Below, one piece after another: positions 8,817 through 53,495 of a stretch of 64,000 nt of DNA. This DNA comes from Sipunculus nudus (Eukaryota; Annelida; Sipuncula; Golfingiida; Sipunculidae), in assembly GCA_026874595.1 (NCBI GenBank), contig CM049316.1, positions 67,108,676-67,172,675 of the forward strand, given 5' to 3'. Below the pieces are notes generated by a model. It saw only the letters and a list, made by a program, of their open reading frames with translations, was not told the origin of the DNA and searched no databases. Positions within the stretch are counted from its first letter, which is position 1. The number at the start of each line of letters is the position of its first letter. The translations under genes were made by a program, and so were the position numbers.

Positions 8817-9017
8817 TCATGACTCATCTACTATTGTTCCGTTTTCAAAGGCCTGCGCTGAGAGATCATCATTGTCGCCATTTCCTTGGTCACCTGATTC
8901 CGTGGCCTCTTGTTCATCTTCCTCCATCTTGTCAACTTTCTTATCATCATCTTCAAGTAGTGCCTCCTCGTCCTGGAGTTCTTTGGACTTGTTCTTCTTA
9001 CTGGTTGTCCCGTTTGT
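8817..9017 (-). CDS. Coding exon 6: lysine-rich start, acidic C-terminus and stop
   Basis: Residues 314-379 and TGA at 8819-8817. The acceptor ATGCAG at 9018 follows a T-rich tract in the sense strand. The exon opens with SKKNKSK (319-325), then a strongly acidic, Asp/Glu-rich, low-complexity tail (326-379) that ends VDES. Vertebrate hnRNP C also ends in a Lys-then-acidic tail, so the C-terminus supports the family call although the middle is different. Overlapping frames here are shadows; only this one joins exon 5 in phase 0. Confidence 0.85.
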   Translation of the reverse strand, partial: TNGTTSKKNKSKELQDEEALLEDDDKKVDKMEEDEQEATESGDQGNGDNDDLSAQAFENGTIVDES

Positions 9018-12000
9018 CTGCATGAAATAAAGAAATACAGCATTTCTTCTTTTTGAAACCACACTTCCTATTAAAAATCACACAGACTATGCCAAAATCT
9101 CAACAACAGGTTATAACTTATGGGTTTTTCTTGATTTGGCACATATTAAACCTGAAATTTTAAAGGCTAAAAATAACATACCAGTATCATTCTTACATTT
9201 TGGTTACCTTCATTTTATATTCATTAGTGTCCCAAACAGGGCATCAACCTATTCTAAAAAGATGTTCATACACAAACACAACGGGCTATTGGAATAGACC
9301 ACTTAATGACTGATCCATTAACACAATCATAAAATTGTCATGTACATGGGAACAGTGCTCTTAATCTGTGCACAAAGCTGAGTGAGGTTTTGTTTTCACT
9401 CACGTCTTTGTGCATATATCTGTGCACAGGTCCACATGATGTGATACCAAAGTTTAGAGAGAGGATATCAAGTAACAATAAAACGGTGGTGTCACACCAG
9501 ACATGTATCAAGTTTTGCTTTGGCAAACTTGTTTATCAACTGTCCACCAGAGGGCAGTGCAATAGTAACATTATCTCATATCATGATTCTAGTACACATT
9601 TTGATATCTGCTATGCACAAGCATGTCATAATAATGATTATTCATTTACATATTCACAATCAAACAGTGAATGATAGAACAATGATATACAATTAATATG
9701 CAGTATAATGATGTGTGTTTTAAAACACAGCAGATCACTGCAATAACATCACACGACACTTGCTGGGTTGTGTCCCTATGAGATATATAAACAAGGGACC
9801 TATGGGTCACGGCGCTCAGCTGTTCTATATGATAAAAAAATATGATTTAGAAATGATTCACATGCTGGTTTTGTGTGGTAAAAAATATAAGCTGTATTAT
9901 AAGTTGTTGTTGTTTAGCTTATGTATGATTTTGATAGTATCTTTGGAGACAGGGAAGAGGATTGATTTCATTTATTTTATTAACAAATGGAGTACTATTG
10001 TCACACAGATTTTGACTTGGCCATTTAACTTATAAGCAGAACATATAATATAAGAGTTTAACTATTTATAAAAAAAATTACAAATATTGTCCCAAATATA
10101 ATTTTTATTAAAAATGATAAGAGAATCTTATGATTTTTTAAAATGAAATATAACTGAAATGATTATTAAAATAATATTAAAGAATATATTCATGAATGCA
10201 TTCACGAATACATTTTGAAAGTATTTGCACTGGTATTCATATACTTTCATTTTTACCTGAATTCCCATTCTTTATGCAAGAAATTTTATAATGGAGTACA
10301 TATTCATATTCGTATTTAAATACAATTGCAAATTATTCGCACCATGTCTGGTATTTACTCAGTTTTCACCAAACAATGATGTTGAGAATCCAGAATATAC
10401 AAAATTAACACATTTAAATAATGATCACAGGGATGTGCTCAGAATAATTTGAGTGCCGGGCGGGCGGGCCGTGCACATGAAAATTGGGGGGGATCACGGG
10501 ATATCTAACGTTTAACTTTCATTTTTTATAGACACGATTCGTGATATTTCAACTGCATGAATAAATCATTAGTAATACTAATAAGCGTCATTAATTTCCA
10601 ATATGCCGACGGAAATGCCGCCACTGAGAGCAAATCTGATTGTAAAAATTAAAACACCGTGGTAAACTCATCTGTCAGTTCAGATTCTGTCGGTCAGGAT
10701 TTGTTGAATACTTCCATATAATATGGGTATAATAGAGGACCGTATTCAGTTTTTCGCGCTTAAAACCTGATACCAAACATCATATTCCACTTTTCTACGG
10801 CAGTTTGGCCTCATTAGGAACTGTGACCTTATAAATGTATTCGAATATTTAGGTCGATCATCAATTATATTCAATCAAACATCGTTTGGCGCGTCATATG
10901 ATTTCATAGAAGCTGATATCAGCATTAGTCTTTTATACAGATACAAGGTGGCGCTACCATAGCAGCTACGTTCACTTCTTTCGTACCAAATTTTATTCAT
11001 CAACATTCACTTAATACGGCACATTTTGAAAGAGTACCTTCTATTAAATATTCATTTGGGCTCCACTGGATGTCATCTAGTGTGGAAGACATGCACTTAG
11101 ATATATTCAACAGGGGTCACTAATTGTAATACCGGTAAAACACCGCGAGAAAAGCATAAACGCGAGTATTTTTGTTCATGGCTTAAACAATTTAAAAATA
11201 TTACTGCCGGGCGGGCATTGACACTTCAAGTCAAGTGCCGGGCGGCAGGAAAGACTGCCGGGCGCACCAGCCCAGCGCCGCCCGGCGTGGGCACATCCCT
11301 GGATCATAAGTACCTGGTTTTATGGCTTTTATTTATATTTTTAAAAAAATAAATGTAATATATTCATTTTGGACTAATTTCACATAAATGTACACATTAG
11401 ACATAGTAGAAATCTAGATTAATATTATCAACTGCATCTTTGTCTATCATTAATTTCCTTCATATGATCCCCAATCATTAGTAATGAATAATATGATTTA
11501 CTTTTTTATCATTAAAATTGAACTGAAAAATACCATAGGTGACTGCATGGTGTTATTTGGAATATGTGACATTCTATTCATCGATACAAGATTCTTATAT
11601 CATCGGTAACTGCAAGTTAATATCCTGTTATATCAACTAACAAATTCCTTTTCTATTTTTCTTTAATTTGTGATTAAAAACCAATAAAAATTTATAAATT
11701 TATTGTTTATTGTTATGTTGTTGATTAAAACTACTAGATGAGTTGGGTTGGACACCTGGATCAACTGTGGCTGGCCATTATATAATAAGCTGCCTGGAGC
11801 CCCAGTTTATGCCTCGCCTCAAGCATGCATAATTTGCTGAAAGTTCAACAAGGTCAACATACAGGTGATTCAAGAGGTGCTACAAAGAGCCAAGGTCTGA
11901 CATGGTCTCATAAAAACATTGATAAAAGCTACAATTTTTGGCCAATTTCTTTCAGCTTTTTAAACTAAAAAGCTGAAATCTTTGTGTGCATGATATGAAA

Positions 12001-18000: not shown

Positions 18001-20106
18001 TTAAATTATCAATGTTTGAAGGAAGGGTAACAAAAATGTATGCTTAATATTGATCCTACCAGCACAATATACATGAGATGCCACTGAAGCTAAAGAATAA
18101 ATTACTGTCCATCTGTGCAGATGTGATGTCTAATTCATGAAGGCTCTATTTTCTATATATTTTCCGGAAACCCTTGTGAACAAAAAGACCACCACATTAT
18201 CAAATCATGAGGAAAATATTGTGATACATACAACAAAGTTAGATAATGTATCACTTGCATCAGTATGTGTCTGTGAAGCCTCACCTTAGCATTCACCTTA
18301 GCAGTCCTTTGTGTTCTAGGGTCCACATAGATGACAGCACCATGACCATTTTGACAATGACGACACAGATCCCAACAGGTGTCGAACACTGCGTTACATG
18401 TAGCACAGGTCCACTGGTCAGGTTCAGGAAAATCTGTCAAACATTTGAAATGATGTTTAAGTATAAATAAACTAAATGTTTATTCCTGTCAATCAAGGTA
18501 CATTTCTATCCGCCCCATACACAGAACAGAATTCAGCTTTTACCCTTTAATTATCCAGATTGGGATAAATTTGAAACTTTTTATTTTTACATGGTAATAT
18601 CTCATTCTGTTTACATTGTATCTTTAAAAAATTTTCTGCATTTACTAGAGGGAAGGTTTCAGTAAACAGAAATATTTAGAACTGAAAATAAATGTACACT
18701 TTTTTATTAGGAAACTTTGGCCAGATAGCAATTACAAATGGTTCAGAGTGACCCTCTCAGCAGTTAAAGGTAACTTTACTGGTCAAAGTGAACAGGAAAT
18801 AATAAACTCAAGTGAATGGTGACATCACAGTGGATTTTATTCAGCATGGAGAAGCCACCTTTTTCACAGTATTGAATGATCAAGGACTGCAACCCAGTGG
18901 TATCATTTATAAGAACTTGAACATACAATACATCTGAATATATATCACACCATGATCAAGCTATGCCCACCTGCACAATAGATAGGTGGCGCTAACAGTA
19001 CAGTCTCATGGCCTCATAACAGATGGAAGAGTTCAGGTCCCAACTGTATAGAGGCAATGTAAATGGTTCATTCTTTGGAGCTAAATAAAAGTTAACGCAT
19101 AATAGGGCAAGAATGGCTTGAGTTACCTTCAGGTACCTTTAAAACACCTTTATTCTCACCTGATTTCGGTACATGGCACTTGCATGTGAAGCGGAGAATA
19201 CACGGATGTCGCTTGTGAGCCTCCATGTGCTCCATGTCAGGGAACTGCTGTTTGCAATTTCCACATATCAAAATATCAGGTGTATCTGAAAAACATGTAA
19301 CAACTTATAATTCATCAACAGAATCTACAGACAAATAATATATATTATTTTTTTTTCTATAGGTACTAACTTTCCCCTGTGGAAACTGCACGAGTATTGT
19401 TTTGATACCGTTAATCACAATATAGATTTCCTGAAGGGGTTTTGTCACTGTAATCTTACTAGCAAGATCTTGTAATGGTAATGTCACAGGTAATTATTGT
19501 GGATGTAAAATTACTTGTAATATTTTGTAACTGTAATGTTATATATAGCTAAAGATGGTAATGATTTTAACACTGGCAATATCTCATACTCTCACACTGT
19601 AATGTTGCCAGCAATATTATTCTATATTCTAACAAGCAATGTCTTGTAACATTAAAGTTACTGGAAATCTCATGGTTGTTATGTTACTTTTGATATCTGG
19701 TGAATGTTTACAATGTTTATTGTGATATCTCATGAGTGTAATTAATGCTGCCGATATCTCATACATGTAACCTAACTGACAATATTTTGTGACTGCAGCT
19801 TTAAAGAAGTAAATTGTGACTGTAACCTTATTTACAGTATCTAGTGACTGTACCCTGTGCTGTGATACACTGAACGAGCACAACTTACGGTACTTCGTGA
19901 CTGTCACAGGTTTGGGCTGCTGGGTGGCTGCTGCTGTTGGAGCTGACCCTGCTGGGAAGCCTGATTTCCCCCTCTTCTGTGTAGAGGGGTTTTGCGGTTT
20001 CTGAGGCTGGATATTGGGGCGTGACCGCTTCATCCCCGACATCCCTCCACCCATACGGTTCATCTGTCCGATGTTCTGAGGCATTTGGAGTGAACCACCA
20101 GACCTG

Positions 20107-20191
<85 letters not shown>

Positions 20192-23100
20192 AAAATTCAA
20201 ATAAATTCTTTAATGGGTAGGTCCATAGCCAGTAGGTGGCACTGTATATTAATTAAGTATAAAAAGTATCCATACAATTAGAATGATATGTTATTGTAAA
20301 GCCATCTAGATTACAGGTTTTATATGCACAAGGTTAGGAGCCAAGCCAAAAGAAGTATACGCTCATCGAGCAGCTGCAGGTTGCTGCCGTCAAGACCTCA
20401 GCCCTGTGCGCTCCTTAAGCATGTTCTCTGAGCCAACAGTCGCAGTGCCACGCCAAGCCAAGCTGGGACCCGTAGGGGGCGCCAGCGTCTCTCCTGGGCC
20501 GTTGTCTTTGTTAGAAAGCTACAGCATCCACAGCCACAGAAGCCAGAAGCAACCCGCATTCCCTCCACCGATCCCAGCAGTGGAGACCCAGCCATGCCAT
20601 TCGAGAGCCATACTCGATCCTTGTGAACGACCTTACTTCGAGACCCAAAGCCCTTTTACTTGTGATTTAAGTCATTTGGACCGTTTAACCAGGTTTCCCG
20701 GTTATGCAAGTTTTACAAGGTAAGGTTTTACATCGGCAAGGTAAGGAATAATCGAGAAGTCGTAACCTGTCAGACAGAGAAAATCTGAGGTTTTGAGATT
20801 TCATATTATTCCACTCCAGCACAAGCAGGGATCAAACTGAGGAGCTTTAGCTCTGAAGTCCCACAGAGATTTGATATTAATTAAGGGCCTCTTGGCAATT
20901 CATTGGCCTAAGAGTATCAAAAACCAGGCATGAACTGTACCAGTCTCAAGTGTTTGTTCACACAGTCAACAAACAAACAAACAATTTTATTTTTTTGGTA
21001 GTGGAATGAGATTATAAACAAAATATTTTGAACTATAAGAGGTCATAAAGTTTAAAAACCTTTTTCAATTTCATATTTTAAATTTGTAACTTATTCAATT
21101 TCAATTTCTGCAAATTTTAAGGATTTTAAAAGCATATGACCCAGTTATTTTCTCTTTTATGTCATTAATTTCTGGGTCAATTTGTAACAAATGTGTTACA
21201 CAAGGGGAAAAGAAGCATGTGCATTAATCGTCCAGGCTAAGGTTCACTCTGAACAGAATGTTGCATGTCTTAATCAGACTAAGCCAGTTTAACGAGATTG
21301 AGATTAAGTGACATTGGTTCGTAAATCAATGCTGAATGACATAACAGTACCTCTTATGGCAACATCCCAAAGTAAATAACAAGATTTTGGCATGGGCAAG
21401 TTAAATTCAACTGCACATACCTAACTGCATTTTTTTCCTTTTGTGCATGTGAATATACAACTCCTGGATTGCACAAACATGATTGAAAACAACTTTATTA
21501 ATCAAGTATTTCATTAGGAACAGAACAATCCAATCATTTATTCAAACAATATTGTATGAAAACATGGCTGAGAAATTCACAGGTTGGTCATTAATCAGGG
21601 TAATTATATATGTAATTTTTTATTTTCATAATTAAACCCAGCCTCGGCAATTAATCACAGATTTCAGGCTGTGTAAGACAGATTGCTGACAGTATTCTGA
21701 AGCTAGTCTTTGTACTGTAATTAATTATTTGGCTTTATTTTGACTCAAATATTATATATACTGAACTGTTTGCAAAAGACATAAATCTCAAAGAAAACTC
21801 ATTAAAATAATGCGTCCTGTGTGTATTTCCCTGGGAAAACAAAAATGATGACAGCCACACAGTCACTCATTTTTATATTGACAACTATCTTGCTTTTACT
21901 GCAAAACCTGGGATACCAATTAAATTTTCAGTGGTCTATTGTAACTTGTTAACTCAGTGTGGATGATCTAATATTGAACACAAAGAATACTGAATGATGC
22001 CAGCATAAAACTACTTATAATCACATTGATGGATCATATTCTGAAATTGTTTGAAATCTGCAAAGTGAACAATGATTTATTCATTACAGTTATTCACATA
22101 GGATCTAATAACAGCACTTAATCATCCGAGGAATACTGGCTGCTCTAATCAATAGGTCAGATTAGTTGAATACCAATGCGGAAAAGAAAAGGGCTGCAGA
22201 GCATGAGTTAGAGCAGGACATTTCACAACACACCCAGTAAATTAGTACAGAGCAGTTGAGTGAGAAAATCACCTCAGAGCTCATCAAATGCTGCATCAAA
22301 ATTAGAGCAGCGCAATATAATAGAAATCAAAGCAGTACTTAGAATTGTTTGGAATTGGTCTTAATTTCATGATTGATCAGAAATAAAAATAAGTTGGCCT
22401 CTGCTGACCCATTATAAGAAATAATCAGTTGTTAAGGAGAATGAAATTTCTGGCCTTATATAGACCTAAATCATGTCTACTAATATTAAGGCATATTAAG
22501 GCTAATATAAGCAATAATTCTATAACCTACATGTGGATATAGTAAACTTAGGTATGACATTATTAATGAACACAATTTTCTGAAGTTGGCTGGCATGAAT
22601 TATATGAAAGCATACATTTCCTTACCACAAAGCCAAAGTAATGTGCATAACTCAGTAATTAATCTTGGAATATGGCAAGGTCCATTATTGGATCGTTTTG
22701 CACTAACTGACTGATCATTTATTAAAGTAAACCATCCATCGACCACTTGTTCCAAAAATCAGCTCAGAAAACAAAAATGGCGCATCAGCTCAGAAAAGCA
22801 CAAGCACAAAAGCCCCAAAGACTAGTTGAAAGAAACTGCAGTTATTTAAAACCAAGCAAACCACCAGTACCATTTGGTCAGGCTACCATTTGCACAGACT
22901 AATTTTTATTTGTTTTCATGAAGAATATGATTGTTTTGTCTACTGGCTACGAGTTAAATAATAAAATCAAGTGCTGAGGGAGAGGTTAAAATCTGGTAGG
23001 AGGAGTTAGTGGAAGACAGCCTGATGAGACATTAGAAATTTGTAACTTCAGCTGTTAAATTACACAAAAGTACAGCCCATTTACAAATAGACTGAGACAC

Positions 23101-29100: not shown

Positions 29101-32100
29101 ATGACTTTCAGTCAGCTGAGCTAAAAATTGAAAAAATACAGGTGGCGCCACCAGAATGCAGAAACTGATGAAACATTTCATGATCAATATCCATGCAAAG
29201 AATCATGGTGATCAATATAATAATTGTTCAGATACTTGAGCTTTTGTATCAAATTTTCCATTATTCTGGGGGGTACTTCGGAGCCCCATAGCTCAGAGGT
29301 TACGGGTAACAGAGACCTAATTTCAAGTTTTTAAGGAGACTTTTCATGGGCCTCTCAGCATGTCAAGAGAGAAGATTCTAGGTCCAGTTGTCACGATTTG
29401 TGCCATGTTAACAGATGACCGCATCTTATGAGGTCTCAAAAATAGAGAAAAAAATTCGTAAAAATAAAAAAAATACAGGTGGCGCCACCATACTGCAGAA
29501 ACTGATGACACATTCCATGATCAATATCCATGCAAAGAATCATGGTGATCACTGCAATAGTTGTTTAGATACTTGAGCTTTTGTATCAAATTTTCCATTA
29601 TTCTGGGGGGTATTTCGGAGCCCCATAGCTCAAAGGTTATGGGTAACAGAGACCTAATTTCAGGTTTCCATAGAGACTTTTTATGGGCCTCCCTGCATGT
29701 CAAGAGAGAAGATTCTAGGTGTAGTCGTTACCATTTGTGCCCTGTTAACAGATGGCCGCATCTTAAGAGGTTTCAAAAATAGAGAAAAATATTGGTAAAA
29801 ATCGAAAAAATACAGGTGGCGCCACCAGTCTGCAGAAACTGATGAAACACTCCATGATCAATATCCATGCAAAAAATCATGATGATCAATGCATTAGTTG
29901 TTCAGATACTTGAGCTTTTGTATCACAGTGACCTAATTTCAAGTTTACAAGGAGAATTTCCATAGACCTCCCAGGATGTCAAGTAAGAAGATTCCAGTTC
30001 TAGCAGTTACGATTTGTGCCCTGTTAACGGACAGACACCCGGACGGCCGACGGACAAAAGGTGATCCCTATAGCTCAGATGACTTACAGTCAGCTGAGCT
30101 AAAAATATGTCAAGACTACTTCAATAATATAGCTCTGAAAACTGATCAGTAACCAGTATGAATTGGGCATAATATGAAACAGTCTCATAATGTAACACTC
30201 ATAGCAATACTTCACTCACTTAAATGTATAATACAAAATATAATATACACAAGATATATTACAGATTTCATGAAAATTTTCTTCTTTGTTGTAAACATGA
30301 ATATCCCCTATTTCCTCTTAAATATTTATTTCCATATGATAAATCTATAAAAGTTATTCCTGAAAAATCAGCCAATCAAATGATGCTCACTTCATTTTAG
30401 ATTGCCATTTCACCTATTATGCCTTATATGTAGCTGAGATAATATATTATTATTAAATACTGGACTTTGCTGTTCATAAGACTAGCCATACACCCATAAT
30501 TTCAACATTCTACCTGTGACATCCAGGTTTTAGTGTGTATGCAAAATGGCAGCCCCCATGAGTAGTTTGAGCAACTGGAAGAAATAAACCTGTCAGAGTA
30601 CTGCGAGGACAGCGTCCAGGTGAGATCTGCAGAGAATGTCTGGTGGAAAGGGAACTTCTATCAGTACATTTACAATGGAACAACGCTTTTTTTTTGGACC
30701 TCACCAGTAGGATGATCAAGCATCTTCAATTTATTGATACAAATCAGTTCACCATGAAATTGTTACAGCCCTAATATAAAGTTCTTTTTCTCAATGGTGT
30801 AGCACTAGCTCACATATCTAGGAATCTAGAATCAGGGGCAAATTCCAGTGAACCAGAATGCCAAGTTCAACTGCACAAGATGTATTGATCAATGCCTAGG
30901 TCTGAAAATAGAACAAACTTCTGCATAATGGCAACCACCCATGTAAATTAACCACACTAACTGTCTTAATTAAGAATAACATATCATTAACTAAATGTAG
31001 ACAGAGTACTTTGAAGGAAGAAATTAAACCATAACTAGAATACGGGTAGTCGACAAGCGACTACGTGTATCCGCCTAAATCAGAGTGGAACGGGTGAAGT
31101 GAGGCATGGATTTAGTGGCAAGGGGAAATAGAGTGAAGTGTTGCATATTAGCAGGGATGTCTGCAGCCAAATTGTGTATGAAGGTTGCCCCCCCTACCAC
31201 AAAATCCAGAAAGCCGTCCCAGTTGTATACATATGCAAAATTTAAGGCAGATAAGTCAAACCACTACATGTATATGAGTGATTTTAGCCCGTGGCAGACA
31301 ATCAGATGGACGCTGAGCAAAAATGGTTGCAGGTGACGGCACCAGTTTTGCGTATGATAAAGAGCTATGTGAGAACTATACACATGCAAAACTTTGGCCC
31401 AATCGGTCAAACGGTTTCCAAGATATGAGTTTGGATGTCTGCTGCATAAACTAGAATGCAGGTGGCTCCAACTGTCATAAAATCAAGAGAGCTGTCGGGG
31501 ATGTATAAACCTGCAAAAATTTTAGCCAGATATGTTAAACTACTGCCGAGATATGATTGAGTTTATCGCATGGCAGACAAACAGACAGGAGCTGTGCACA
31601 AATGGCTGCAGGTGGCGCCACCAGTTTTGCATATGGTAAAAAGCTCTCCAAGGGCTACATTTGTGCAAAAAAATTTTCCTGATCGGTCAAACGGTTTCCG
31701 GGATATGAGCTTGGTTGTCTGCAGCGTGAACGTGAATGAAGGTGGCGCCACCTGTCACAAAATCAGAAAAGCTAACCAGGATGTATACGCATGCCAAATT
31801 TCAGGTGAATTAGTCAAGTCACTGCAGAGATATGAGTGATTTTAACCCAAGGCAGACAAACAGATGGACATGGTGCAAACATGGTTGCAGGTGGGGCCAC
31901 CATTTTTTGTGTATATTATAAAGCTCTCCAAGGGCTACATTTGTGCAAAAAAATTTTCCTGATCGGTCAAACGGTTCCCGAGATATGAGCTTGGATGTCT
32001 GCAGCGTAAACGTGAATGTAGGTGGCACCACCTGTCACAAAATCAGAAAAGCTAACCAGGATGCATACGCATGCCAAATTTCAGGTGAATTAGTCAAGTC

Positions 32101-35100
32101 ACTGCAGAGATATGAGTGATTTTAACCCAAGGCAGACGAACAGATGGACACTGTGCAAACATGGTTGCAGGTGGCGCCACCATTTTTTGTGTATGTTATA
32201 AAGCTCTCCAAGGGCTACATTTGTGCAAAAAAATTTTCCTGATCCGTCAAACGGTTCCCGAGAAATGTGGGATTATGTGTGGAAACAGACGCACAAACGG
32301 ACGCAGAGCGCAGAGGAAAGGTCCGAGGTCAAAACAAAATCGGGGCACAGCAGTTCACATGTGACCCGAACATAATCCCGGGTTTCGTAAAATTCCGCCC
32401 AGCGGTTACGGAGGAGTTCTCCTGAAACCTACGCGGCGGCGGCGGTGGCGGTGGCGGCGTGGAGCTGAAAACATAGTTAAAAACAAGTTACAGACCATCA
32501 GTCCCTATGATCATAGTAAGTATTGTGAAAATCCATCCAATGGTTCCTGAGAAATAAGCTTCTAAAAGTTTTTTCTATAATCAGCTCTAAAACGTAGAAA
32601 AATAGGTCAAGGTCACCCATCTTCGAACTTGCCGAGATTTTGTCAATATACATCATCACCGAAAAAATAAAATTCTTACAGTGAATCCTTTTCGAGATAT
32701 CCCGCTCAAAAGCCCAAAGTTGAAAAATCTGATAAAAATTCATTAAAAATCAGAAATTGTAGGTGGCGCCACCAAACTTGTATAGCAGGTACAGACTATC
32801 AGTCCCAATAATCATAGTAAGTTTTGTGAAAATCCACCAAATGGTTCCTGAGTAATAAGCATCTAAGTGTTTTTCTATAATCAGCTCTAAAATGTAGAAA
32901 AATAGGTCAAGGTCACCCATCTTCGAACTTGACCGAGATTTTGTCGATATACATCTTTACCGAGGAAATAAAATTCTGACGGTGAATCCTTTTCAAGATA
33001 TCCCGCTCACAAGGTATAAGTTAACGGACGCCGGACGGACAGACGGACGGACGGATGGACAGCTTGGGTGACGACAATAGCCCATCAGCCTAAGGGCTGA
33101 GGGCTAATAAAAAGTCAAAAAGGAAGCTATTGAAACAGACACTACAATGATTTCTTTTTCATTTTCTAAATGGGAGGTAATGTGCTCACCTCTGTTTACT
33201 GATTGGTTTGTATGTCTGCTTTGACATGGGACACGTCATAAAAACTTGACTTGATGTTTGCTTTTGACATTAGTAAGCTGGCTTGTTAAAAGTTGTCCCA
33301 AAAAGTTTGAAAAATACAAATTTTGAGGATATTAAAACAAATTCTGGTCAGTTCATCACAATTTAGTCACTATAATTGTAATGACTATGCATTTCATCAT
33401 AGTGAATGTATATAAAATTCATTGTACTAATGTTACACACCTCTGATTTTACTAAAATCATGGAACTCTGTGATGTTCCATTTCATCATAGTGACTGTAC
33501 TGTACAATGAGATCTATCTTGCAACATTCAGGACTTTGTTCCATACAAACTGGTGCATGTAGCTAAACTGATACATTTGGTTCTAGTCTGCATTAAACAA
33601 ACAACTGTAGTTTGAGGAAAGACTTTGAAATGCTTGAATGGAACAAATTTGACAGGGATATATGACATGATGATATTCTGTTGGTGAAACCTACTTTGAA
33701 AATTTCAGAGTTTTCCTGTTACCAGACATGTGTTGGTGGACAACTCCACAGAATAATGCAGCAACAATGTTGGCAAATTCAAGAAAATTATGAGTTTGAA
33801 CTTTTTCAAAAACTTTAGGAGATCTTCAGTACTTTGGCATACATTTCACATTTAAAATTTAATAATTTTTAAAAGTTTACCTGTTGTAAAAACCCATCAA
33901 ATACCCCACACAACCACCTGCATATCCAGATATATGTCAAGGGAAGAATGAGAATCTGGGAAGATCCAGTATCCTCCCCGGAAAAATGAGAATTCTGATT
34001 TTTCCCGGGGAAAAATGAGAATCATTTCATACTGTGATTTGATTCTGATTTTTCCCAGGAAGAATGAGAATTCTGATTTTTCCGTGGAAAAACCAGAATT
34101 CTTATTATTCCCAGCCTGCTCCTGTTTGTTAAATAGTATCCTTTTAATAGTTATGGTGGGTTAAGTTTGCATATTTTACTACAGTTTTATAACTAAACTT
34201 TAATGTTATTAACTGACCATTGCTAAAAGAACAGTACCAGGTAACATTTGGTGTCATAAAAACAAGGGACCTATGGGTCACGACGCTCAGCTGTTATATA
34301 TGATAAAAAAATATTATTTAGAAAGGAGGTACATGCTGGTTTTGTGTGGTAATAAATATAAGCTGTATTATAAGTTGTTGTTGTTTAGCTTATGTATGAT
34401 TTTGATAGTACCTTTGGAGACAGGGAAGGGGATTGATTTCATTTATTTTATTAACAAATGGAGTACTACTGTCACACAGATTTTGACTTGGCCATATAAC
34501 TTATAAGCAGAACATATTATATAAGAGTTTAACTATTTATTAAAAAAATTACAAATATTGTCCCAAATATAATTTTTATTAAAAATAATAAGAGAATCAT
34601 ATGATTTTTTAAAATGAAATATAACTGATATTATTATTAAAATAATATTAAAGAATATATTCATGAATGCATTCATGAATACATTTTGAAAGTATTTGCA
34701 CGAGTATTCATATACTTTCATTTTTACCTGAATTCCCATTCTTTATGCAAGAAATTTTATAATGGAGTACATAATCATATTCATATTTAAATACAATTAC
34801 AAAGTATTTGCACCATGTCTGGTATTTATTCAGTTTTCACCAAACAATGATGTTGAGAATCCAGAATATACAAATTTCACACATTTAAATAATGATCATA
34901 AGTACCTGGTTTTATGGCTTTTATTTATATTAAAAAATAACTGTAAAAAATTCATTTAAGACTTATTTCACATCAATGTACACACTAGACACAGTAGGAA
35001 TCTGGATTAATATTATCAACTGCATCTTTGTCTATCATTAATTTCCTTCATATAATCCTTAATGATTAGTAATGAATAATATGATTTACTTCTTTATCAT

Positions 35101-41300: not shown

Positions 41301-44300
41301 AGGAACATTTTCAAGACATGAGCACGGAAACAGAGTGACCACTGAAGGGAAGCCAGCACAGGAACTGACACCAAATAAAATACTACAGAACATGTTACTT
41401 TTGTGAAACTTATGCAAATTAACATGAGTTGACATGGTGTTTTTTCTCTTTTTTATACAAATATTGAAAGTCTTAAGGAAATGTGTAAATTTCATCTATG
41501 AGAAAAATGACACCAGATGAATGGTAAAGCTGGTATTGCACTCATTTGCTTAATACAAACCCATGAATTACATAAAATCGGGAGCAATTTTCATGAGCAT
41601 GTATCTTTCACAAATCATGGTACATTTGCAAAATTTGCAAAAAATGCATGCTAGCAAAATTTTCTGGTTATACAGTAGCTGACCAATAGAGGGGTTATGT
41701 GGACGGTACAATAGTTCATTACCCCAGAATCTAACCTTTCTGCCCTTATTTCACAGTTCAGAAAACAACCTGCAGGTGGCTCTGCCTACTCTATGATGAT
41801 AAAGGTAACCGCCTGATAATGGGTTAAGATGTTTGTGTTCCAGGTTAAACATGATCTTACAATACCATATGGTTTTAAGTTTCTCCTATAAGTGTACACC
41901 ACAAATGTTGCCAATAAGTGTTTTTTTTTTTTTTTACTTTAATCTGAATCAAGAAGATTGATTTTTTGTAATTGTTTCTGATTCTTGATATTATATAGTA
42001 TAAGAAATCTCCCAAATAAGCTCAGAAATGTAAAAATTCAGTAAAAATATCAAAATAATACAAGTCATAGTCATTGGTCTGACATTACAGGATACCTTAT
42101 TTTCCACTATTTTCCCATGTGACTAATGTGTTATTGAACCTGAGAACAATATACTTCCAATACAATGGCATTCTCCCCAAGACACCGACAAGTGGCATTT
42201 TGTCAATGGCTACGGAGTCTGGTCCGGTTTAAATCAAATCAGGAAACAAAGTCTGAAGGGGTTCCACCATCATATCAATAGATTTCAAGGCTGCCGACCT
42301 GTCTTTGTTAAAATGAACCTACTGAAAGCTGAAAGCCACCAAAAGAATTTATGTGTTAAGCTTAAAAGCTAAAACATTTGTTAAGTAGTGAATATACCTG
42401 TTTTAAGGCCAAGCATCGTACTCACTGCTTGTCTGCTTACTATGCATGCACAGACTGTCGAGTTTAAACTTTTATTTATTTCACATGGATTGTACAAAAA
42501 GTTGATATAACTAATGCTAGGCCTGGATGCAGGCGTCCAGTAGAATAATATTAGAGGTAGAGGAAACCAAACGATGCAGAGATATCTACTGGCCTTGAAC
42601 TAGCCGTGAATACAAGACTCAACAGGCTTTTATGGTAAGTTTAACTTGAGAAGTGATACAAGCCATACAGAGGAATGCATTGCAGTTGTCTTCCATCATG
42701 TTGCATCAATTAATATTATGCTAAAAAGCCCATAATCTTAACATGCTATGAGATATAAATTAACACAAAAGAATAAAAATGAACTCACAACACAAACATG
42801 TGTTCAGTTAACAGTGCTCACTTTAAAATAACCCACCACTGGCCACTTTTATCATATAAACCTGATGACACAAACATGTATGGTTACTATGATAAAATGA
42901 TCTATTGAGTCTTTATGCAAGTACTGACTTAATGCCTCTGCCAGAACAGTAATTCTTATACCCTTTTATGTCTGTTTGTGTGTTTGTTCACAAGATAACT
43001 CGCACATTCCTGAATGGAATCTCATAAATTTCCAGAGCCTCTCGAGAACGGGCCACTGAAGAATTTATTAGATTTTGGTGTGAATCTGGCACATGATCAG
43101 GATTCACCAACATCATCATATATTCACAAAATGGAATATTCACAAATGTTGATATGGGAATAAGGACCAAATAATGACCTGAACATGGTGGAGGCTTGCA
43201 CTCCTTTAAATGCAGATTTAAGCATATTTTACAGAACTACAGAAGAGACATAAAATACTCTATCAATAATCAATCATCATTTTCTTTCAATCATCAAATA
43301 TGATTTTTACACCCAATCCCAACCACTTATTATTACCACGTCAAAATTTTCTGAATTCACAACAAAAATAACATTTACTGACCATTGTTCCTGCATTGGA
43401 TTCGGCCACTGTTCTCCCTGTGACAGAGTGCGCTTCCTCATCGTGCCCTGACCCATCATGCTCGGGCCCATCATGCTCGGCATGTTCATGTTCATATTCA
43501 TACTCATGTTCATATTCATGTTTGGTTTGCTGATGAGTCTATTGTGTATCTTTGGTTCAGCTGCCAGATTCACATCTGTAAAGAAGAAGTTTATTACATA
43601 ATTTTCTATTGAATAAGTACATACATAAAACTCTGTCATCTCATTTTTATCCAGGTCATACTGAAAACTGAAATTTCCTTGATTGAAGACTTGCATGAAT
43701 TGATACCTGACAGAGGTGTTAAATTCCCCTACTTGATATTGGCATCAGTAGCTGTTCTTTGATATGAGAAAGATGTACAAAAATCCTGCACCTGGATAAG
43801 TTAAAATTTCAAACCACTTTTTATGTCAAGACCTACATCCAGGGTTGGAGTGATTGTATTGTAAATGTAGTTAATTCTATTATGATTAATTTAAAACTGT
43901 TTACTTACAATTACAGTGGAACCTGTCTTAAACACCACCTGTCTTATAAGACCACCTGTCTATCAAGACCACCCTTGAGTATAACAAAAGCATTCATATT
44001 AGGTAAAACTGACCCATCGAAGAGGACCACCTGTGAATATAGACCACTTTTGGCAAGTCCCATGGGTCATCTTATTAATAAGGTTTCACTGTACCTCAAA
44101 TATTAACGTAACTGATCACAACAGCGGTTAATTCGGCATGTAATCATGATAACTTTCAAGATAACAAGTTTTATATAATTTACAAATTACACAAAAATGC
44201 ATGTTCTTCATTTACAGGTCAACAAATAAGATAAAGTCACTGCACCGCCACACTGACAGTTTGACAAAAGATTTTTTCCGCTACACTTAAAAGTATCTCA

Positions 44301-50300: not shown

Positions 50301-53300
50301 GTGAATACACAAAGCAGTAGGCTGTGAAGTCTGTATTTGAGTCGTGACATAAAACATTTGCAGAAAAGCACTGCAAAGGGCATCATATTGCATCAGTACT
50401 GTGGTAAACAGCCAGTAATCTTAACATTAGACTATGAGTGATGAATAAATATAAAAGAATACACATGAGCTCATCTCTATGGTAACAGTGCAGTGTCTGT
50501 GTGAGATATAAGTTCACTATTGTCCAGTGAGCTGTGTGGAACATGCTTGTGCATGTGGAGGGATTCACAATATGCTGAGATAAAACCGAACTTTCTCACA
50601 CGTTGTAGCTGTTGTTAAAAAGTACACATACATATCTAACAGTAACATTGGTTCTGGTATATTTCAAGCTGTTCAAAATGATGAAATATCAGAATTCTCA
50701 TGGAGTTTAACAGAGCAGCCATTGTTATAAGATGTAAAGATGCTGGTCAGAGACACTCTTAAATGTTGGAGGGCTGAAACAGCACACACTCATTTATACA
50801 ATAAAAGATCAGAATGATTCTGATGCTGTTCAAGTAGTAACTAACCAATCAGGTTTAACATTTACTCATTCCTGGGAAACAATAATTATAAATCAAATGT
50901 AGCCTTCCATGGGATGATGACTGTGTCATTGATGAACTGATAATGCAAAAGAAATTAGACCAACTGATACAATATTTGTCTTTGTATTATGACTGATCAG
51001 TGCAAAAAGCGTCATTACATTCCAGGTAATAGTGTATTCATTTATCTTATTTTAAGCGGCCTATTAGACTTCTATTATAAACATGTGATGGGCTGATGAT
51101 CGATTATAATTGATGATTGGTTGACTGATGGACACGATTTGATCATCGATCTTGCAGAGAAATAATCGATCACAAAAATGTTCACAAAACTTATGCTTTG
51201 TGATGAAATGTATGCTTTCATGAAAGTCTCTAGAAAACTTGCAAAGTCTCTAGAAAATTTTGTGTAATTTCATAAACAAGGAACCTTATAACACACACAC
51301 ACAGGATATAAAATCAGCTATATATTAGCAATTATGAAGGTTTTATATCAGTTGAGAAGAATTATAGGTCTGTATGTGGTAACAAATTCCATACTCCTAC
51401 ACAACCAATAAATTCTGATTTCCAGTTCGTAGAGATCTACTGATTTTTACAGTGCAATCATGAAATTACAACTGATTCTCAAAACTTATATTTACTTTAG
51501 ACCTTTGGACCTTTTATAAAAACAGGCCAGAAAACTATGATCCTGTAGTAATAGGCTATTCATTTTGTTTATATTTACATGTTTATTGAGTGTGTTGGGG
51601 GGGGGGGGCAAAATACATTCATGAAGGACATCTGGTAGTGATTCAGTGATTCAGATGAACCAGAGTTTAGCAAAGGGCTATCTGCAACAAGTGATCTTTC
51701 ATCTTCTACACAACTTCAACACACCACCTCAGATTACATAATTTTTCTCTTTGTCAATAATGTTGTGTTTACAAACAGCTTGTTGATAAACAAGCTCATA
51801 CAGCCTTCACAGAGGTGTTATACTTACTTTTCTTACCAGGAATTAGCTAGAGTCCATAAGCATGAACACACAGAGAAAGCCAGATATCACATAAATTCTA
51901 TTTAAAAGGTAGGTAAATAGATCACTTTAAAAGGCAAGTATAATAAATCTGCTGCAGATATCACTTTTTATAGAAGGACTCTTTGAATAAGTATGCACTA
52001 TGTTTTTGTTAAACTTCTGATCTCTACCATCACTGTAAGAGATTTCTGTTTTTTTTTTATCATCTGCTGGCTCCAATCCCTTTGCAGTTTTTCACTGCCC
52101 CTGTATATATATATGTTTAAAGCACAGACACTGTTAACATCACTTGTTGGTTTGGCAGGAAAAGGAACCTCTTTCTCTTCTTTACTGTACATTTGGGGCA
52201 ATTTACATCAAGCATGACTGATGATTAATTTCAAATGATGAACCACCTATCATACAGAAACAACATACACAAGATGTCTGCCCATGAATTGACCCAATCT
52301 TCAAAGAGTATCCCTAAACTAGCTCAGGTGATTGACAGGTTTAATTGATAACCAATCCTTGGAGGGCTTGCTCAATCCATTTGGTGTCCATAACAGATCT
52401 GCTTTCAGTCCCTCTGCCAAACAGAATTTCTAATGCGTGATGGTGCCAGAGGGGCTATCTTCTTCCCATCTGATCAGTTGCTAGATTCATCAATATTTCC
52501 AAATGAAGGTTTGAAGGTTAAAATACTTTCTCTTGGAAGTTTGTCTGATTTCTCAAGTTTTTATGTGGCAAAACACAGTAATGTTGAAGATTCAGCCTCA
52601 AAGCATTAATCTTATATAAAATATGGAATGAGCAACAAAAATCTACATCAGCAACTTCACCAAATATATTTAGCGGGTATATACATACAACTGTATTATA
52701 TACCATTCTTCAATTTTCAAACATAAAACTGACTAAAATATTTCTTTTACACCATTTCAGTTTTTTTTGCTTCACTTGAAAAAGATGTTACAGTTGTATA
52801 AATATTCAAAATGCAAATTCAGTTTTGGTTAGTACATACTAAAACTCTTGAAAACTGTATATTAAAATTTTAATCAACTTTACCAAAATATTCAAACTCG
52901 ACTATTTAAACAGCATAAAATTAAAATGCCTCCTCTGCAAGTCAGAACTCGCAGCTGCTTTTCGCTATGGAACTGGTATCTGACAGAACTACAAATGTTA
53001 CATGTATCAACATCTGAAGCAAAAACAAAAAGTGTCATCATCCTATGTGCCCCCCTCTCAATCCAGCCCTGTTTCAACTACCTGTACACATAGAGTGAAG
53101 CTCGTTCATGCTTATAAAATAAGTTAACTAAGTAAGACTGAGTTATTCCATACTGATTGACAATCACTCCTTAGTCCTATGGGAATCACCACACCATGTT
53201 TCTTAATTTATGCAGCCTTCTGCTTGTGTACATACTAACCTATCACTTGATTGGCGTAGTTCTTCCCGTCTTCACAAGACACAGCTCGACGGGCGTCAGA

Positions 53301-53495
53301 GGGAATCTGGTACTGGACGAACGCGTACCCTTTGTGCATTGATATACCTGTGATGTTTCCATAACGAGCGAAGATCACTTCAACCTGCTCTTTGGTCAAC
53401 TGGAACGTGTTCAAATTACCAACAAACACTCGAGACTGTATTGACATTGGGTCTGTTGCATTGGTGCAACTTCCCACTCTTGGCATCATATCCAT
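8817..53495 (-). CDS. RRM plus BCL11-type zinc-finger protein, hnRNP C/RALY-like; join of six coding exons
   Basis: Complement join 53495-53240, 43575-43383, 20103-19889, 19285-19160, 18433-18285, 9017-8817. The lengths (256, 193, 215, 126, 149, 201 nt) sum to 1140 nt, that is 379 residues plus stop, with junction phases 1, 2, 1, 1, 0. Domains: one RRM (about 21-94; RNP2 VFVGNL at 23-28, RNP1 KGYAFVQY at 55-62), a Met/Asn repeat (104-117), a basic Gly/Met/Pro/Gln linker (132-221), a CCHC finger (C229, C232, H245, C250), a C2H2 finger (C273, C276, H289, H294) and an acidic tail (326-379). The RRM and the motif DVNLAAEPK after it are diagnostic of the hnRNP C/RALY family, whose members also end acidic. 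Both fingers resemble the first two fingers of BCL11A/B. Inferred role: nuclear RNA- or chromatin-associated regulator. The leucine-zipper-like segment of vertebrate hnRNP C is not evident. An unseen extra exon in the 23-kb intron is possible, but phases do not require one. Confidence 0.88.
9018..9789. other. Start of intron 6 with a short hairpin
   Basis: Intronic sequence next to the last exon. A hairpin at 9369-9414 pairs TGCACAAAG with CTTTGTGCA and has an inner GTGAG/CACTC stem. Nothing else stands out. Confidence 0.5.
9790..14930 (+). mobile_element. Family A HINE-like element A1 with duplicated body
   Basis: The 5' end AACAAGGGACC carries a small hairpin (GACC/GGGTC) and GCTCAGCTG at 9814-9822. 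That motif is inverted as CAGCTGAGC in the 29-nt 3' hairpin. The body has ~680-bp core monomers (junctions near 12031, 12711, 13648, 14330), each body closing with CAAAACGTGCCACATC, an ACGG/CAGA simple repeat and a hairpin followed by AAAAA. Two such 3' ends are present: hairpins 13280-13308 and 14897-14925. Body 2 therefore follows body 1 head-to-tail with no second 5' end. The copy contains element E at 10428-11301. A2 at 34261 is a single-body relative. There is no transposase gene. The architecture matches non-autonomous Helentron/pearl-like elements of bivalves. Confidence 0.82.
10428..11301. mobile_element. Element E: 874-bp TIR transposon nested in A1
   Basis: The ends are CAGGGATGTGC and its reverse complement GCACATCCCTG, flanked by GATCA on both sides (10423-10427 and 11302-11306). 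The related copy A2 has a single GATCA at the same place, so it is the empty site. Sub-terminal regions are rich in GCCGGGCGG repeats in opposite orientation. CAGGG ends suggest a hAT-like element, though a 5-bp duplication is shorter than the usual 8. It has no coding capacity. Confidence 0.85.
14931..15255. other. Intronic spacer
   Basis: AT-rich intron 6 sequence between two HINE-like elements; nothing recognised. Confidence 0.5.
15256..17084 (+). mobile_element. Family B HINE-like element with ~180-bp core repeats
   Basis: The 5' end AACTAGATGTGTCGGTAAGA includes a GTGTC/GACAC hairpin, then ATGCCCCCGCC at 15281-15291. Its exact inverse GGCGGGGGCAT is at 17074-17084, as the outer arm of a 29-nt terminal hairpin (17056-17084) followed by AAAAAT. 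Between them are core monomers starting with GTCYGTAC near 16105, 16284, 16462, 16642, 16812 and 16992, periods 170-180 bp. These are followed by a GGAAGGACGGAATGACGG simple repeat. A partial unit (15300-15425) is separated from the rest by family D sequence. It is a classic pearl/HINE layout. Confidence 0.85.
15426..16099 (+). mobile_element. Family D HINE-like element inside or joined to B
   Basis: Two ~300-bp core units ('accatcagtcccaatgatc', 'tggttcctgagatataagc', 'gtcaaggtcacccatcttc') are followed by a GGAC/AGAC simple repeat (16009-16054) and a 29-nt hairpin at 16071-16099, then an A-run. B core sequence resumes right after. The left limit is approximate. It is closely related to 32476-33106. 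Confidence 0.72.
17091..18284. other. Intron 6, no gene; contains a segment shared with 20.36 kb
   Basis: At 17330-17395 the sequence GAGCAACTACAGGTTGCTG through GTGCTCCTTAAGC matches a segment at about 20365-20420, probably a short dispersed element. The rest is AT-rich intron. An open frame on each strand here resembles nothing known. Confidence 0.45.
18285..18433 (-). CDS. Coding exon 5: C2H2 zinc finger of BCL11 type
   Basis: Residues 264-313. It is a classical finger C273-x2-C276-x12-H289-x4-H294, with WTC at the first Cys, a Trp (W284) in the helix, and QNGHGAVIYVD at its end. This matches the QNxHGxxIYxE ending of the first C2H2 finger of BCL11A/B rather than a generic TGEKP-linked array. 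The acceptor TTTGACAG precedes 18433. Two near-identical donors lie 12 nt apart: GCTAAG|GTGAAT (exon end 18297) and GCTAAG|GTGAGG (18285). The second is closer to consensus, and either keeps the frame. Confidence 0.9.
18434..19159. other. Intron 5, no other feature seen
   Basis: A 726-bp intron with standard ends. It contains one AGGTGGCGCTAAC motif near 18985, a short sequence common in repeats of this window. Confidence 0.6.
19160..19285 (-). CDS. Coding exon 4: CCHC zinc finger of BCL11 N-terminal type
   Basis: Residues 222-264. The finger reads C229-x2-C232-x12-H245-x4-C250, with CGNC at its first cysteine pair, FP four residues after C232, and HKR at the histidine. BCL11A/B carry an atypical CCHC finger near their N-terminus with the same CGxC, FP and EHKR hallmarks. 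A second Cys pair (C256, C258) follows. The acceptor TTTTTCAG precedes 19285 and the donor AAATCAG|GTGAGA is at 19160/19159, both phase 1. The exon is symmetric (126 nt), so skipping it would delete exactly this finger and keep the frame. Confidence 0.88.
19430..19905. repeat. Degenerate 28-bp minisatellite filling intron 4
   Basis: Copies of a unit starting TGACTGTAACC and ending CAATATCTCA recur at 19645, 19673, (19701), 19733, 19762, 19790, 19817, 19845, about 19871 and 19898, mostly 27-29 bp apart. The last copies run over the exon 3 donor (19889/19888) into the exon. Confidence 0.75.
19889..20103 (-). CDS. Coding exon 3: basic Gly/Met/Pro/Gln-rich linker
   Basis: This exon encodes residues 150-222, a low-complexity linker rich in Met, Gly, Pro, Gln and Lys, with basic clusters such as KRSRP (175-179) and QKRGKS (192-197) that could serve as a nuclear localisation signal (inference). 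The acceptor TTTACAG before 20103 is preceded by about 75 bp of pure (TA)n with no polypyrimidine tract, which is unusual. The donor TACC|GTAAGT at 19889/19888 is strong. No conserved domain is seen. Support comes from matching phases on both sides and from the compositional continuity (Met/Gly) with exon 2. Confidence 0.82.
20110..20186. repeat. (TA)n microsatellite at the exon 3 acceptor
   Basis: About 38 TA units end three bases before the acceptor's CAG on the sense strand, replacing the polypyrimidine tract. Confidence 0.97.
20340..20740. other. GC-rich segment of unknown nature in intron 3
   Basis: About 400 bp clearly richer in GC than its flanks. It is open on the plus strand from 20406 to 20723, and a GTAAGG donor-like site follows at 20720. 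A minus-strand frame also exists. The predicted peptides resemble nothing I know. Its left part is shared with 17330-17395. It could be a short interspersed element, a processed pseudogene fragment or an exon of an overlapping plus-strand transcript; I cannot decide. Confidence 0.4.
20741..27563. other. Repeat-poor block of intron 3, no gene
   Basis: Nearly 7 kb with no HINE-like element, TIR pair or microsatellite that I can recognise. It holds many ATTA/TAAT-type motifs (for example 22090-22470). It could hold conserved regulatory elements, but that cannot be judged from one sequence. Confidence 0.45.
27564..27760 (+). mobile_element. Family K fragment ('GGTCC' repeat)
   Basis: It begins CAGGGATGGATCAAGGATTT, then repeats AAAGGGGGTCC-like motifs. 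It matches, inverted, the end at 63240-63350. The right end is missing. It resembles a widespread invertebrate MITE whose end reads GGATCC-GCCCCTG. Confidence 0.5.
27922..30105 (+). mobile_element. Family A element A3 with two 3' ends
   Basis: The 5' end AACAAGTGACCC with hairpin TGACCC/GGGTCA is followed by GCTCAGCTG, as in A1. The core differs: units around ATTCTGGGGGGTACTT recur near 28220, 28388, 28554, 28891, 29261 and 29599, spaced ~168 or ~338-370 bp. GGTGGCGCCACC occurs at 28771, 29141, 29478 and 29815. Two 29-nt hairpins with AAAAAT (29094-29122 and 30072-30100), each after a GGACGGCCGGAC-type simple repeat, mark two successive 3' ends. The second body has no 5' end of its own. Confidence 0.8.
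30107..31032. other. Intronic spacer, nothing recognised
   Basis: AT-rich intron 3 sequence with short open frames only. Confidence 0.5.
31033..32475 (+). mobile_element. Family C HINE-like element C1
   Basis: The 5' end AACTAGAATACGGG carries the hairpin GTAGTCG/CGACTAC, then TATCCGCC. The core is a ~280-bp dimer (GGCAGACAA-type landmarks at 31297, 31573, 31850, 32131). A palindrome of the GGTGGCGCCACC type sits in each half, spaced alternately ~130 and ~150 bp. The 3' part has GCGGCGG repeats and ends ...GAAAACATAG. Open frames inside come from the core repeat and are not genes. It is directly followed by D sequence. Confidence 0.75.
32476..33106 (+). mobile_element. Family D element D2
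   Basis: Two core units like those at 15426-16099, GGTGGCGCCACC at 32762-32773, a GGAC/AGAC simple repeat at 33025-33060, and a 29-nt 3' hairpin at 33078-33106 followed by ATAAAAA. The 5' end is not recognisable; it may be a composite with C1. Confidence 0.72.
33108..33929. other. Intronic spacer
   Basis: AT-rich. The motif CATTTCATCATAGTGA is repeated at about 33392 and 33481. Nothing else recognised. Confidence 0.45.
33930..37556. mobile_element. Fold-back element F1 interrupted by A2
   Basis: It starts ATATATGTCAAGGGAAGAAT. The arms are arrays in which CCCGGG and GAATTC palindromes alternate about every 11 bp, separated by AAAAATGAG/CTCATTTTT. The interior is unique AT-rich sequence shared with F2. 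A2 (34261-36873) is inserted in an A-run. The right end stops at GGATTCCGGATC, where F2 begins. Confidence 0.75.
34261..36873 (+). mobile_element. Family A element A2, single body, nested in F1
   Basis: This is the simplest complete family-A copy. The 5' end AACAAGGGACC with GCTCAGCTG is followed by a ~1-kb left arm including the perfect palindrome at 34659-34680. Two ~680-bp core monomers follow, then an ACGG simple repeat (36789-36815), the 29-nt hairpin 36840-36868 and AAAAA. The neighbouring F2 copy has no insertion at the matching point, which confirms both ends and shows insertion into an A-run without a clear target duplication. Confidence 0.85.
37557..38787. mobile_element. Fold-back element F2, head-to-tail with F1
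   Basis: The left end ATATGTCAAGGGAAGAAT is inverted at the right end ATTCTTCCCTCGACATAT. Both arms hold CCCGGG/GAATTC arrays. The interior matches F1 and includes an (AT)n tract at 38284-38343. It is complete and has no coding capacity. Confidence 0.75.
38284..38343. repeat. (AT)n microsatellite
   Basis: AT-alternating tract inside F2, absent from F1. Confidence 0.93.
38788..39816. other. Intronic spacer, nothing recognised
   Basis: AT-rich intron 3 sequence, no repeats or exons seen. Confidence 0.5.
39817..40093 (-). mobile_element. Family G HINE-like fragment ('CTTCCGCCAAGG' repeat)
   Basis: The left edge is TTTTTTTACTTCCGCC with a CCGCC-AAGG-GGCGG hairpin (39829-39842). The right edge is GGTGGAGGTC...GTGCTTTTCTAGTG. 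Read on the minus strand it starts like B and C (AC-TAGA) and ends in a hairpin followed by an A-run. I recognise it as a repeat type common in many aquatic animals. This copy is short. Confidence 0.65.
40094..42970. other. Intron 3, no gene or complete repeat recognised
   Basis: Contains a T-run at 41921-41936 and ordinary AT-rich sequence. Short open frames are not gene-like. Confidence 0.5.
42971..43205 (+). mobile_element. Family J repeat copy 1
   Basis: It starts TGTGTTTGTTCACAAGATAA and ends near GGTGGAGGCTTGCACTCC, similar to copies at 53740-53985 (inverted) and 63545-63800. The end resembles family G. It lies just downstream of exon 2 in the sense direction. Confidence 0.6.
43383..43575 (-). 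CDS. Coding exon 2: end of RRM and Met/Asn repeat
   Basis: The acceptor TTCTTTACAG precedes 43575. The first codon, completed with G from exon 1, is D86 of DVNLAAEPK, the hallmark continuation of hnRNP C/RALY RRMs, so the 9.7-kb intron is placed with confidence. Next comes a run of alternating Asn-Met codons (104-117, at 43481-43522), then SMMGPSMMGQG and a basic patch RKR at 132-134. The donor that fits the next exon's phase is TG|GTCAGT at 43383/43382 (codon 150, Trp, is split). A donor 4 nt further on (TCA|GTAAAT) would shift the frame against the zinc fingers, so I did not choose it. Confidence 0.92.
43481..43522 (-). repeat. Coding hexanucleotide repeat (Asn-Met)
   Basis: Seven AAY/AGY-ATG pairs encode Asn-Met residues 104-117 of the RRM/zinc-finger protein, with one Ser interruption. 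Confidence 0.9.
43912..44093. mobile_element. 182-bp TA-flanked MITE with internal 'AAGACCACCTGTC' repeats
   Basis: The left end TACAGTGGAACCTGTC and right end AGGTTTCACTGTA are imperfect inverted repeats bounded by TA. Inside, GACCACCTGTCT-like words repeat every ~16-18 bp and occur in both orientations. It resembles pogo/Tc1-type MITEs. Confidence 0.75.
44094..47620. other. Intron 2, no gene recognised
   Basis: AT-rich. A balanced-composition stretch at 45650-45960 has no repeat signature, and open frames there match nothing known. A small AT palindrome cluster lies at 45165-45215. Confidence 0.45.
47621..48744 (+). mobile_element. Family C element C2
   Basis: Same 5' end as C1 (AACTAGAATACGGG and the GTAGTCG/CGACTAC hairpin). 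Core landmarks at 47870, 48147 and 48426 are ~278 bp apart, and the GCGGCGGCGG 3' part ends ...GAAAACATAG. The palindromes are degraded (GGTGGCACCACC near 48038). It is shorter and more diverged than C1. Confidence 0.75.
48745..53239. other. Intron 2, no gene; diverged local repeats
   Basis: A ~44-bp direct repeat (ACAAACTCTCCAG near 48956 and 49000), a G-run at 51597-51608, and loosely similar stretches at about 49690-49960 and 50395-50600. No exon-like sequence was found. Confidence 0.4.
51597..51608 (+). repeat. poly(G) tract
   Basis: Twelve G. Confidence 0.9.

What the first reader, a model, noticed from the sequence alone, without database searches (positions are those of the whole stretch)
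8817..53495. One gene joins an hnRNP C/RALY RRM to BCL11-type zinc fingers
Six exons with matching phases give a 379-residue protein in which the hnRNP C-family RRM and an acidic tail flank a CCHC and a C2H2 finger. Both fingers have the hallmarks of the first two BCL11A/B fingers. In vertebrates these are separate gene families: RNA packaging versus transcription repression. I do not know of the fusion being described. If real, it is a lineage-specific domain shuffle, or the ancestral form of one family, linking RNA binding with a BCL11-like DNA or protein contact.
Basis: partly seen in the sequence, partly recalled or inferred. Interest (0 to 1): 0.8.

Follow-up and report, generated by a model that had tools for sequence, protein, structure and literature searches.

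The report
hnRNP C-like gene carrying zinc fingers
In an unnamed animal genome, the predicted gene for an RNA-packaging protein of the hnRNP C/RALY type carries two zinc fingers related to those of the BCL11 gene regulators, where human hnRNP C has a coiled coil that it uses to assemble.

Summary
Six minus-strand exons with GT-AG introns and matching phases give an open 379-residue protein. Its RRM is hnRNP C/RALY-type (51 of 89 residues identical to hnRNP C), with no second strong match among 13 candidates scored in the genome. The C2H2 finger is BCL11-type: of 12 genome matches the best non-self one is the separate, canonical BCL11 gene. The CCHC finger is less clear: 12, not 14, residues between second Cys and His, most BCL11B contact residues missing, below the Pfam cut-off, nearest to a ZFP64-like exon. 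Yet two BCL11-type gene models share the window's plan: CCHC exon 1-1, C2H2 exon entered in phase 1. I read a diverged BCL11-type module inside a single hnRNP C/RALY-type gene, serving as a protein-contact surface where vertebrates have a coiled coil, which was not found in the window. No transcript and no second animal genome could be examined, so the joining of exon 2 to exon 3, the spread and the age of the architecture stay open.

The parts
53240..53514 (-). exon 1: end of 5'UTR, ATG at 53495, most of the hnRNP C/RALY-type RRM
43383..43575 (-). exon 2: end of the RRM match ('DVNLAAEPK') and a Met/Asn-rich linker
19889..20103 (-). exon 3: basic linker with KRSR and KRGKSGF stretches (NLS-like by eye); holds in-frame Met codons at residues 157, 164, 167, 171, 174
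   Evidence: resemblance to recalled hnRNP C weak (70 of 2000 shuffles as good; tblastn E=0.56)
19160..19285 (-). exon 4: CCHC finger C-x2-C-x12-H-x4-C, phase 1-1 exon
18285..18433 (-). exon 5: BCL11-type C2H2 finger (W.L..H.QN.HG..IY), entered in phase 1, left in phase 0
8817..9017 (-). exon 6: acidic C-terminal tail (66 codons) and stop codon
   Evidence: tblastn to recalled hnRNP C tail E=0.004, filter off
61001..62250 (.). CpG-rich stretch (o/e 0.97-1.28 in four overlapping 500-base steps, window median 0.30) with a minus-strand CAG|GTAAGT donor after base 61125: probable promoter and 5'UTR exon
   Evidence: inferred

Best explanation
This is the hnRNP C/RALY-type gene of an unnamed animal. 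Its product should be a nuclear, U-tract-binding RNA packaging protein (RRM and its flanks conserved: shown by sequence; nuclear location and RNA binding inferred) with a basic linker and an acidic tail. Where vertebrate hnRNP C has its coiled-coil oligomerisation segment, this protein carries a CCHC plus C2H2 pair that most likely descends from the BCL11-type two-exon finger module. The fingers are separated by about 20 residues and not by a TGEKP-type linker, so I expect a protein-contact surface (partner recruitment or self-association) rather than sequence-specific DNA reading; that step is inferred. If the pair self-associates, it is not through the exact BCL11B interface, most of which is missing.
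For: RRM: PDB phmmer hnRNP C 1.6e-29, RALY 3.6e-26, next PUF60 2.2e-9; identities 51 of 89 and 47 of 90. Second copy not seen: 7 matches from 13 scored candidates, 2 of them window exons, next E=0.0016. C2H2: 41% identical to the finger of the canonical BCL11 gene; C C F W L H Q H I Y shared with both other BCL11-type fingers; 12 genome matches, 2 self, best other BCL11 at E=0.00115; 0 of 2000 shuffles reach its scores; recalled BCL11A finds it in the window at E=1.6e-7 and the CCHC at 0.018. Module: CCHC exon 1-1 and phase-1 entry of the C2H2 exon in BCL11 (C3), the C11:5.4 Mb gene and the window. Exons 3-5 span 1.8 kb and exon 5 is needed to reach the acidic frame. Within the window the recalled hnRNP C middle-and-tail piece best finds exon 6 (E=0.004, filter off) and, third of six hits, exon 3 (E=0.56), in the right strand and order. 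AlphaFold2 gives the CCHC exon two short bridges and a helix (17-24), mean pLDDT 67.
Against: No transcript data. Exon 2 to exon 3 is a 23.3-kb intron joined on frame alone, and exon 3 has in-frame Met codons from which a separate gene could start. Shuffles that do as well against recalled C-terminal parts: hnRNP C, exon 2 1942, exon 3 70, exon 6 379 of 2000; RALY, 480, 129 and 179 of 2000. The CCHC finger scores 83 to the ZFP64-like exon, 69 to recalled ZFP64, 59 to recalled BCL11A, and identity is 48% to the ZFP64-like against 34 and 35% to the two BCL11-type CCHC exons; Pfam CCHC_BCL-11A E 0.15 (whole), 0.032 (pair), 0.019 (exon frame), all under the cut-off. The CCHC exon of canonical BCL11 and both fingers of the C11:5.4 Mb gene are not among the 12 matches. 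BCL11B contacts L67, I70, I74 (PMC8036541, passages) align here to a gap, Met and Glu. Intron 3 holds one AATAAA. The reverse genome search did not complete.
Confidence: 0.66

Rival explanations
1. Two genes: exons 1-2 (RRM) belong to an hnRNP C-like gene with another 3' part, and exons 3-6 are a separate small zinc-finger gene on the same strand, starting at a Met in exon 3.
For: 23.3 kb between exons 2 and 3; five in-frame Met codons in exon 3; one AATAAA in intron 3; exon 3 and tail only weakly like hnRNP C.
Against: Exon 4 cannot be a first exon with its finger whole: its frame runs back to a stop without Met and its own Met codons lie inside the finger. No recognisable coiled coil offers another 3' part in the window (best CLZ hit E=0.37). 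The promoter-like CpG stretch lies at 61-62 kb; a CpG-rich spot at 32 kb, in intron 2, is a repeat with copies near 15.5-16 and 47.8-48.7 kb. Exon 3 opens with a good acceptor that fits exon 2.
Confidence: 0.18
2. One gene, but the CCHC finger came from a ZFP64-like source or arose on its own; only the C2H2 finger is BCL11-type.
For: Scores 83, 69 and 59 to ZFP64-like exon, recalled ZFP64 and recalled BCL11A; 12-residue spacing shared with the ZFP64-like exon.
Against: Order and the 1-1, then 1 phase plan are those of the BCL11-type gene models; the ZFP64-like exon reads 1-0 with the donor I chose. Loss of two residues would convert the spacing; fingers this short carry little signal.
Confidence: 0.25
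3. An old animal architecture: many invertebrates have hnRNP C/RALY genes with these fingers and vertebrates lost them (compatible with the best explanation; it concerns age).
For: No second RRM gene of this type was seen, and the fingers are well diverged from BCL11, which suggests age rather than a recent join (inference).
Against: Untested: no second animal genome. In viral contigs the finger query matched no pattern, the RRM query 4 stretches of which none was confirmed; in genome contigs 7 stretches, none confirmed.
Confidence: 0.45

Closest known systems
Vertebrate hnRNP C and RALY
   Same: RRM with its N- and C-terminal flanks; basic linker; acidic tail as in hnRNP C
   Different: No coiled-coil CLZ recognised in the window; two zinc fingers stand between basic linker and acidic tail
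BCL11A/BCL11B/ZNF296 (ZFAM2) transcription factors
   Same: C2H2 finger signature W.L..H.QN.HG..IY; CCHC then C2H2; exon phases 1-1 and 1 as in the own-genome BCL11
   Different: CCHC two residues shorter and without most of the BCL11B contacts; none of the later paired fingers; an RRM is present
ZFP64-like CCHC exon of this genome (name recalled)
   Same: CCHC spacing and sequence (56%, 48%)
   Different: exon read as 1-0; followed about 9 kb on by TGEKP-type fingers; no BCL11-type C2H2 seen in the 19.8 kb looked at

Membership tests
hnRNP C/RALY | hnRNP C/RALY-type RRM with the flanks TDP.S..SRVF and (in hnRNP C) NLAAEPK | tested here: met
hnRNP C/RALY | CLZ coiled-coil oligomerisation segment behind the basic region (hnRNP C: PMC8994388, passages) | tested here: not met
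   tblastn of recalled hnRNP C and RALY coils against the window: best E 0.37 and 1.4; two six-frame patterns gave no match; a strongly diverged coil is not excluded
hnRNP C/RALY | acidic C-terminal domain (hnRNP C) | tested here: inconclusive
   acidic tail present; tblastn E=0.004 with the filter off, but 379 of 2000 shuffles align as well
BCL11 | C2H2 finger with W.L..H.QN.HG..IY | tested here: met
BCL11 | CCHC finger with 14 residues between second Cys and His and hydrophobic multimer contacts (PMC8036541, passages) | tested here: not met
   12 residues; contacts gap/Met/Glu (my reading); Pfam E 0.019-0.15, below cut-off
BCL11 | phase 1-1 CCHC exon and phase-1 entry into the C2H2 exon, as in the own-genome BCL11 | tested here: met
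   (splice sites of the other genes read by eye)
BCL11 | later paired C2H2 fingers | tested here: not met
   the product ends in an acidic tail; the own-genome BCL11 has them
ZFP64-like | CCHC exon 1-0 | tested here: not met
   window exon 4 is 1-1; the donor of the ZFP64-like exon is less certain

The most novel reading that the evidence does not exclude
An hnRNP C protein that has exchanged its coiled-coil oligomeriser for a transcription-factor finger module, so that RNA packaging is assembled or targeted through BCL11-type contacts, coupling nascent RNA to chromatin repressor partners.
Probability: 0.2. Interest if true: 0.75.

Novelty: new variant of a known kind. Interest (0 to 1): 0.55.

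Why it matters
hnRNP C oligomerisation is described as needed for measuring transcript length and for strong RNA binding (PMC8994388, passages). A family member with fingers where the coil should be would let one test whether that assembly can be replaced by another module, and would link an RNA packaging protein with a finger pair otherwise seen in BCL11-type genes. By my reading the BCL11-type CCHC+C2H2 module occurs in three gene models of this genome.

Tried and rejected
Coiled coil in the window: not recognised. The printed list was cut at 60 lines and did not show the hnRNP C middle-and-tail query; one search repeated it. Relatives in viral contigs and genome contigs: none confirmed, as expected for an animal gene. 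Pfam for the C2H2 exon: no family at E<=1. PDB for the finger pair: best E 0.11. The bacterial promoter scan and the Rfam look at the 32-kb CpG spot (no match) were not used. The 32-kb spot was weighed as a promoter for exons 3-6 and rejected as a repeat. Drosophila CG42458 was followed as a recalled candidate relative; the passages seen in three papers name no zinc finger, so it was dropped, untested.

Literature: no description of the fusion in the listings (9 of 9 papers shown; 10 of 10; 10 of 14; 10 of 10; 10 of 93; 8 of 30). Seven papers were opened: PMC12127727 by abstract and outline; PMC8036541, PMC8994388, PMC2889900, PMC10632452, PMC6125337 and PMC6890465 by passages.

On checking the draft I mended some counts (donor sites, exon-3 Met codons, shuffles left out). 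Because exon 3 holds Met codons, I lowered the best explanation from 0.68 to 0.66, the single gene from 0.85 to 0.82, and raised the two-gene rival from 0.15 to 0.18.

Full report
What is there. A CpG-rich stretch at 61.0-62.25 kb with the only CAG|GTAAGT on that strand (after base 61125) is a likely promoter and 5'UTR exon (inferred).

RRM. Residues 9-97 match hnRNP C (2mxy, 1.6e-29; 51 of 89 identical); residues 6-95 match RALY (1wf1, 3.6e-26; 47 of 90), far ahead of PUF60 (2.2e-9). The match includes the flanks on both sides and runs across the exon 1-2 junction. In the genome no second such gene was seen: 7 matches from 13 scored candidates, two of them the window's exons, the next at E=0.0016 (the tool scores only its best candidates).

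C2H2 finger. The finger pair gave 12 genome matches: two self, then C3:22.96 Mb at E=0.00115, which I identify as the canonical BCL11 gene (large exon with this finger and later paired fingers). The two C2H2 fingers are 41% identical. Against recalled human BCL11A the score is 98, against own BCL11 90, none of 2000 shuffles reaching either. The reverse search did not complete, so this relation is one-way within the genome.

CCHC finger. Pfam CCHC_BCL-11A finds it only at E 0.019-0.15. In the genome that model gives 16 matches, two over its cut-off: one 31 kb upstream of the BCL11 finger exon on the same strand, taken as the CCHC exon of that gene (50.9 bits), and one in a second BCL11-type gene model at C11:5.4 Mb (48.1 bits); the window exon is not listed, the ZFP64-like one has 17.8 bits. 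The window finger has 12 residues between second Cys and His, BCL11B 14 (PMC8036541, passages). Of the BCL11B contact residues L67, I70 and I74, own-genome BCL11 keeps L, I, I and the C11:5.4 Mb gene L, F, V; the window has a gap, M and E (my reading). Its best relative is a CCHC exon at C11:46.68 Mb (score 83; 56%), about 9 kb before ZFP64-like fingers (name recalled).

Module. Exon phases speak for BCL11 all the same. In canonical BCL11, in the C11:5.4 Mb gene and in the window the CCHC exon reads 1-1 and the C2H2 exon starts in phase 1, its first Cys being the 6th, 7th and 9th full codon; the ZFP64-like exon reads 1-0, with a less certain donor. In the two other genes CCHC and C2H2 exons are 31 and 9 kb apart and I did not look for exons between. 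The same order and phases in three gene models make a shared two-exon module the simplest reading, with a diverged CCHC in the window. Against this, one search did not bring up either finger of the C11:5.4 Mb gene or the BCL11 CCHC.

One gene or two. Exon 4 cannot start a protein with its finger whole, but exon 3 could, having five in-frame Met codons. Exon 3 lies 603 bases above exon 4 in phase, and exon 5 is needed to reach the acidic frame; exon 4 alone could be skipped in frame. Codon composition favours five of six exons over open intron stretches (0 of 300 each), exon 5 less (19 of 300), and does not single out the frame of exon 2. The recalled hnRNP C middle and tail best finds exon 6 in the window (E=0.004, filter off) and also exon 3 (E=0.56), though shuffles show composition explains much of it. 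Against: 23.3 kb between exons 2 and 3, an AATAAA in intron 3, and no transcript. A CpG-rich spot at 32 kb in intron 2 is a repeat. I put a single gene at about 0.82.

How it may work. Human hnRNP C assembles through the CLZ coil behind its basic region (PMC8994388, passages); none was recognised in the window. BCL11B multimerises through its CCHC finger (PMC12127727, abstract). It is tempting to see one oligomeriser replaced by another, but the contact residues are mostly missing, so I favour a protein-contact role in general and keep the swap as the bold case. The CCHC exon was modelled with two short bridges and a helix at mean pLDDT 67 (two-row alignment); the C2H2 exon could not be modelled.

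Novelty. No description of the fusion turned up in the listings in an open-access library; some searches showed only part of their papers. Annotated invertebrate proteins could not be searched, so the protein may already sit in databases under a RALY-like name.

Noticed in passing
L028, L035, L036 (own genome C11:5.401-5.416 Mb): A second BCL11-type gene model, minus strand: PF25491 CCHC (48.1 bits), a C2H2 finger W.L..HAQ..H..IY, then four further C2H2 fingers seen; distinct from canonical BCL11 on C3.
   Followed up: partly
L013 with L024, L025 (own genome C11:46.68 Mb): CCHC exon, read as 1-0, closest to the window's CCHC, followed about 9 kb on by TGEKP-type fingers; ZFP64-like (name recalled).
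   Followed up: partly
L012 (own genome C2:53924530-53924715): Stretch 41% identical to the finger pair over query 27-89 (E=0.028) but without the C2H2 cysteine pair; possibly decayed or chance.
   Followed up: no
window 32001-32750, with copies near 15.5-16, 31.2-33.0 and 47.8-48.7 kb: CpG-rich repeat (o/e about 1.0-1.2) with matches of 73-96% identity within the window.
   Followed up: partly
window 61001-62250: CpG-rich stretch (o/e about 1.0-1.3, window median 0.30) with a minus-strand CAG|GTAAGT donor after base 61125.
   Followed up: partly
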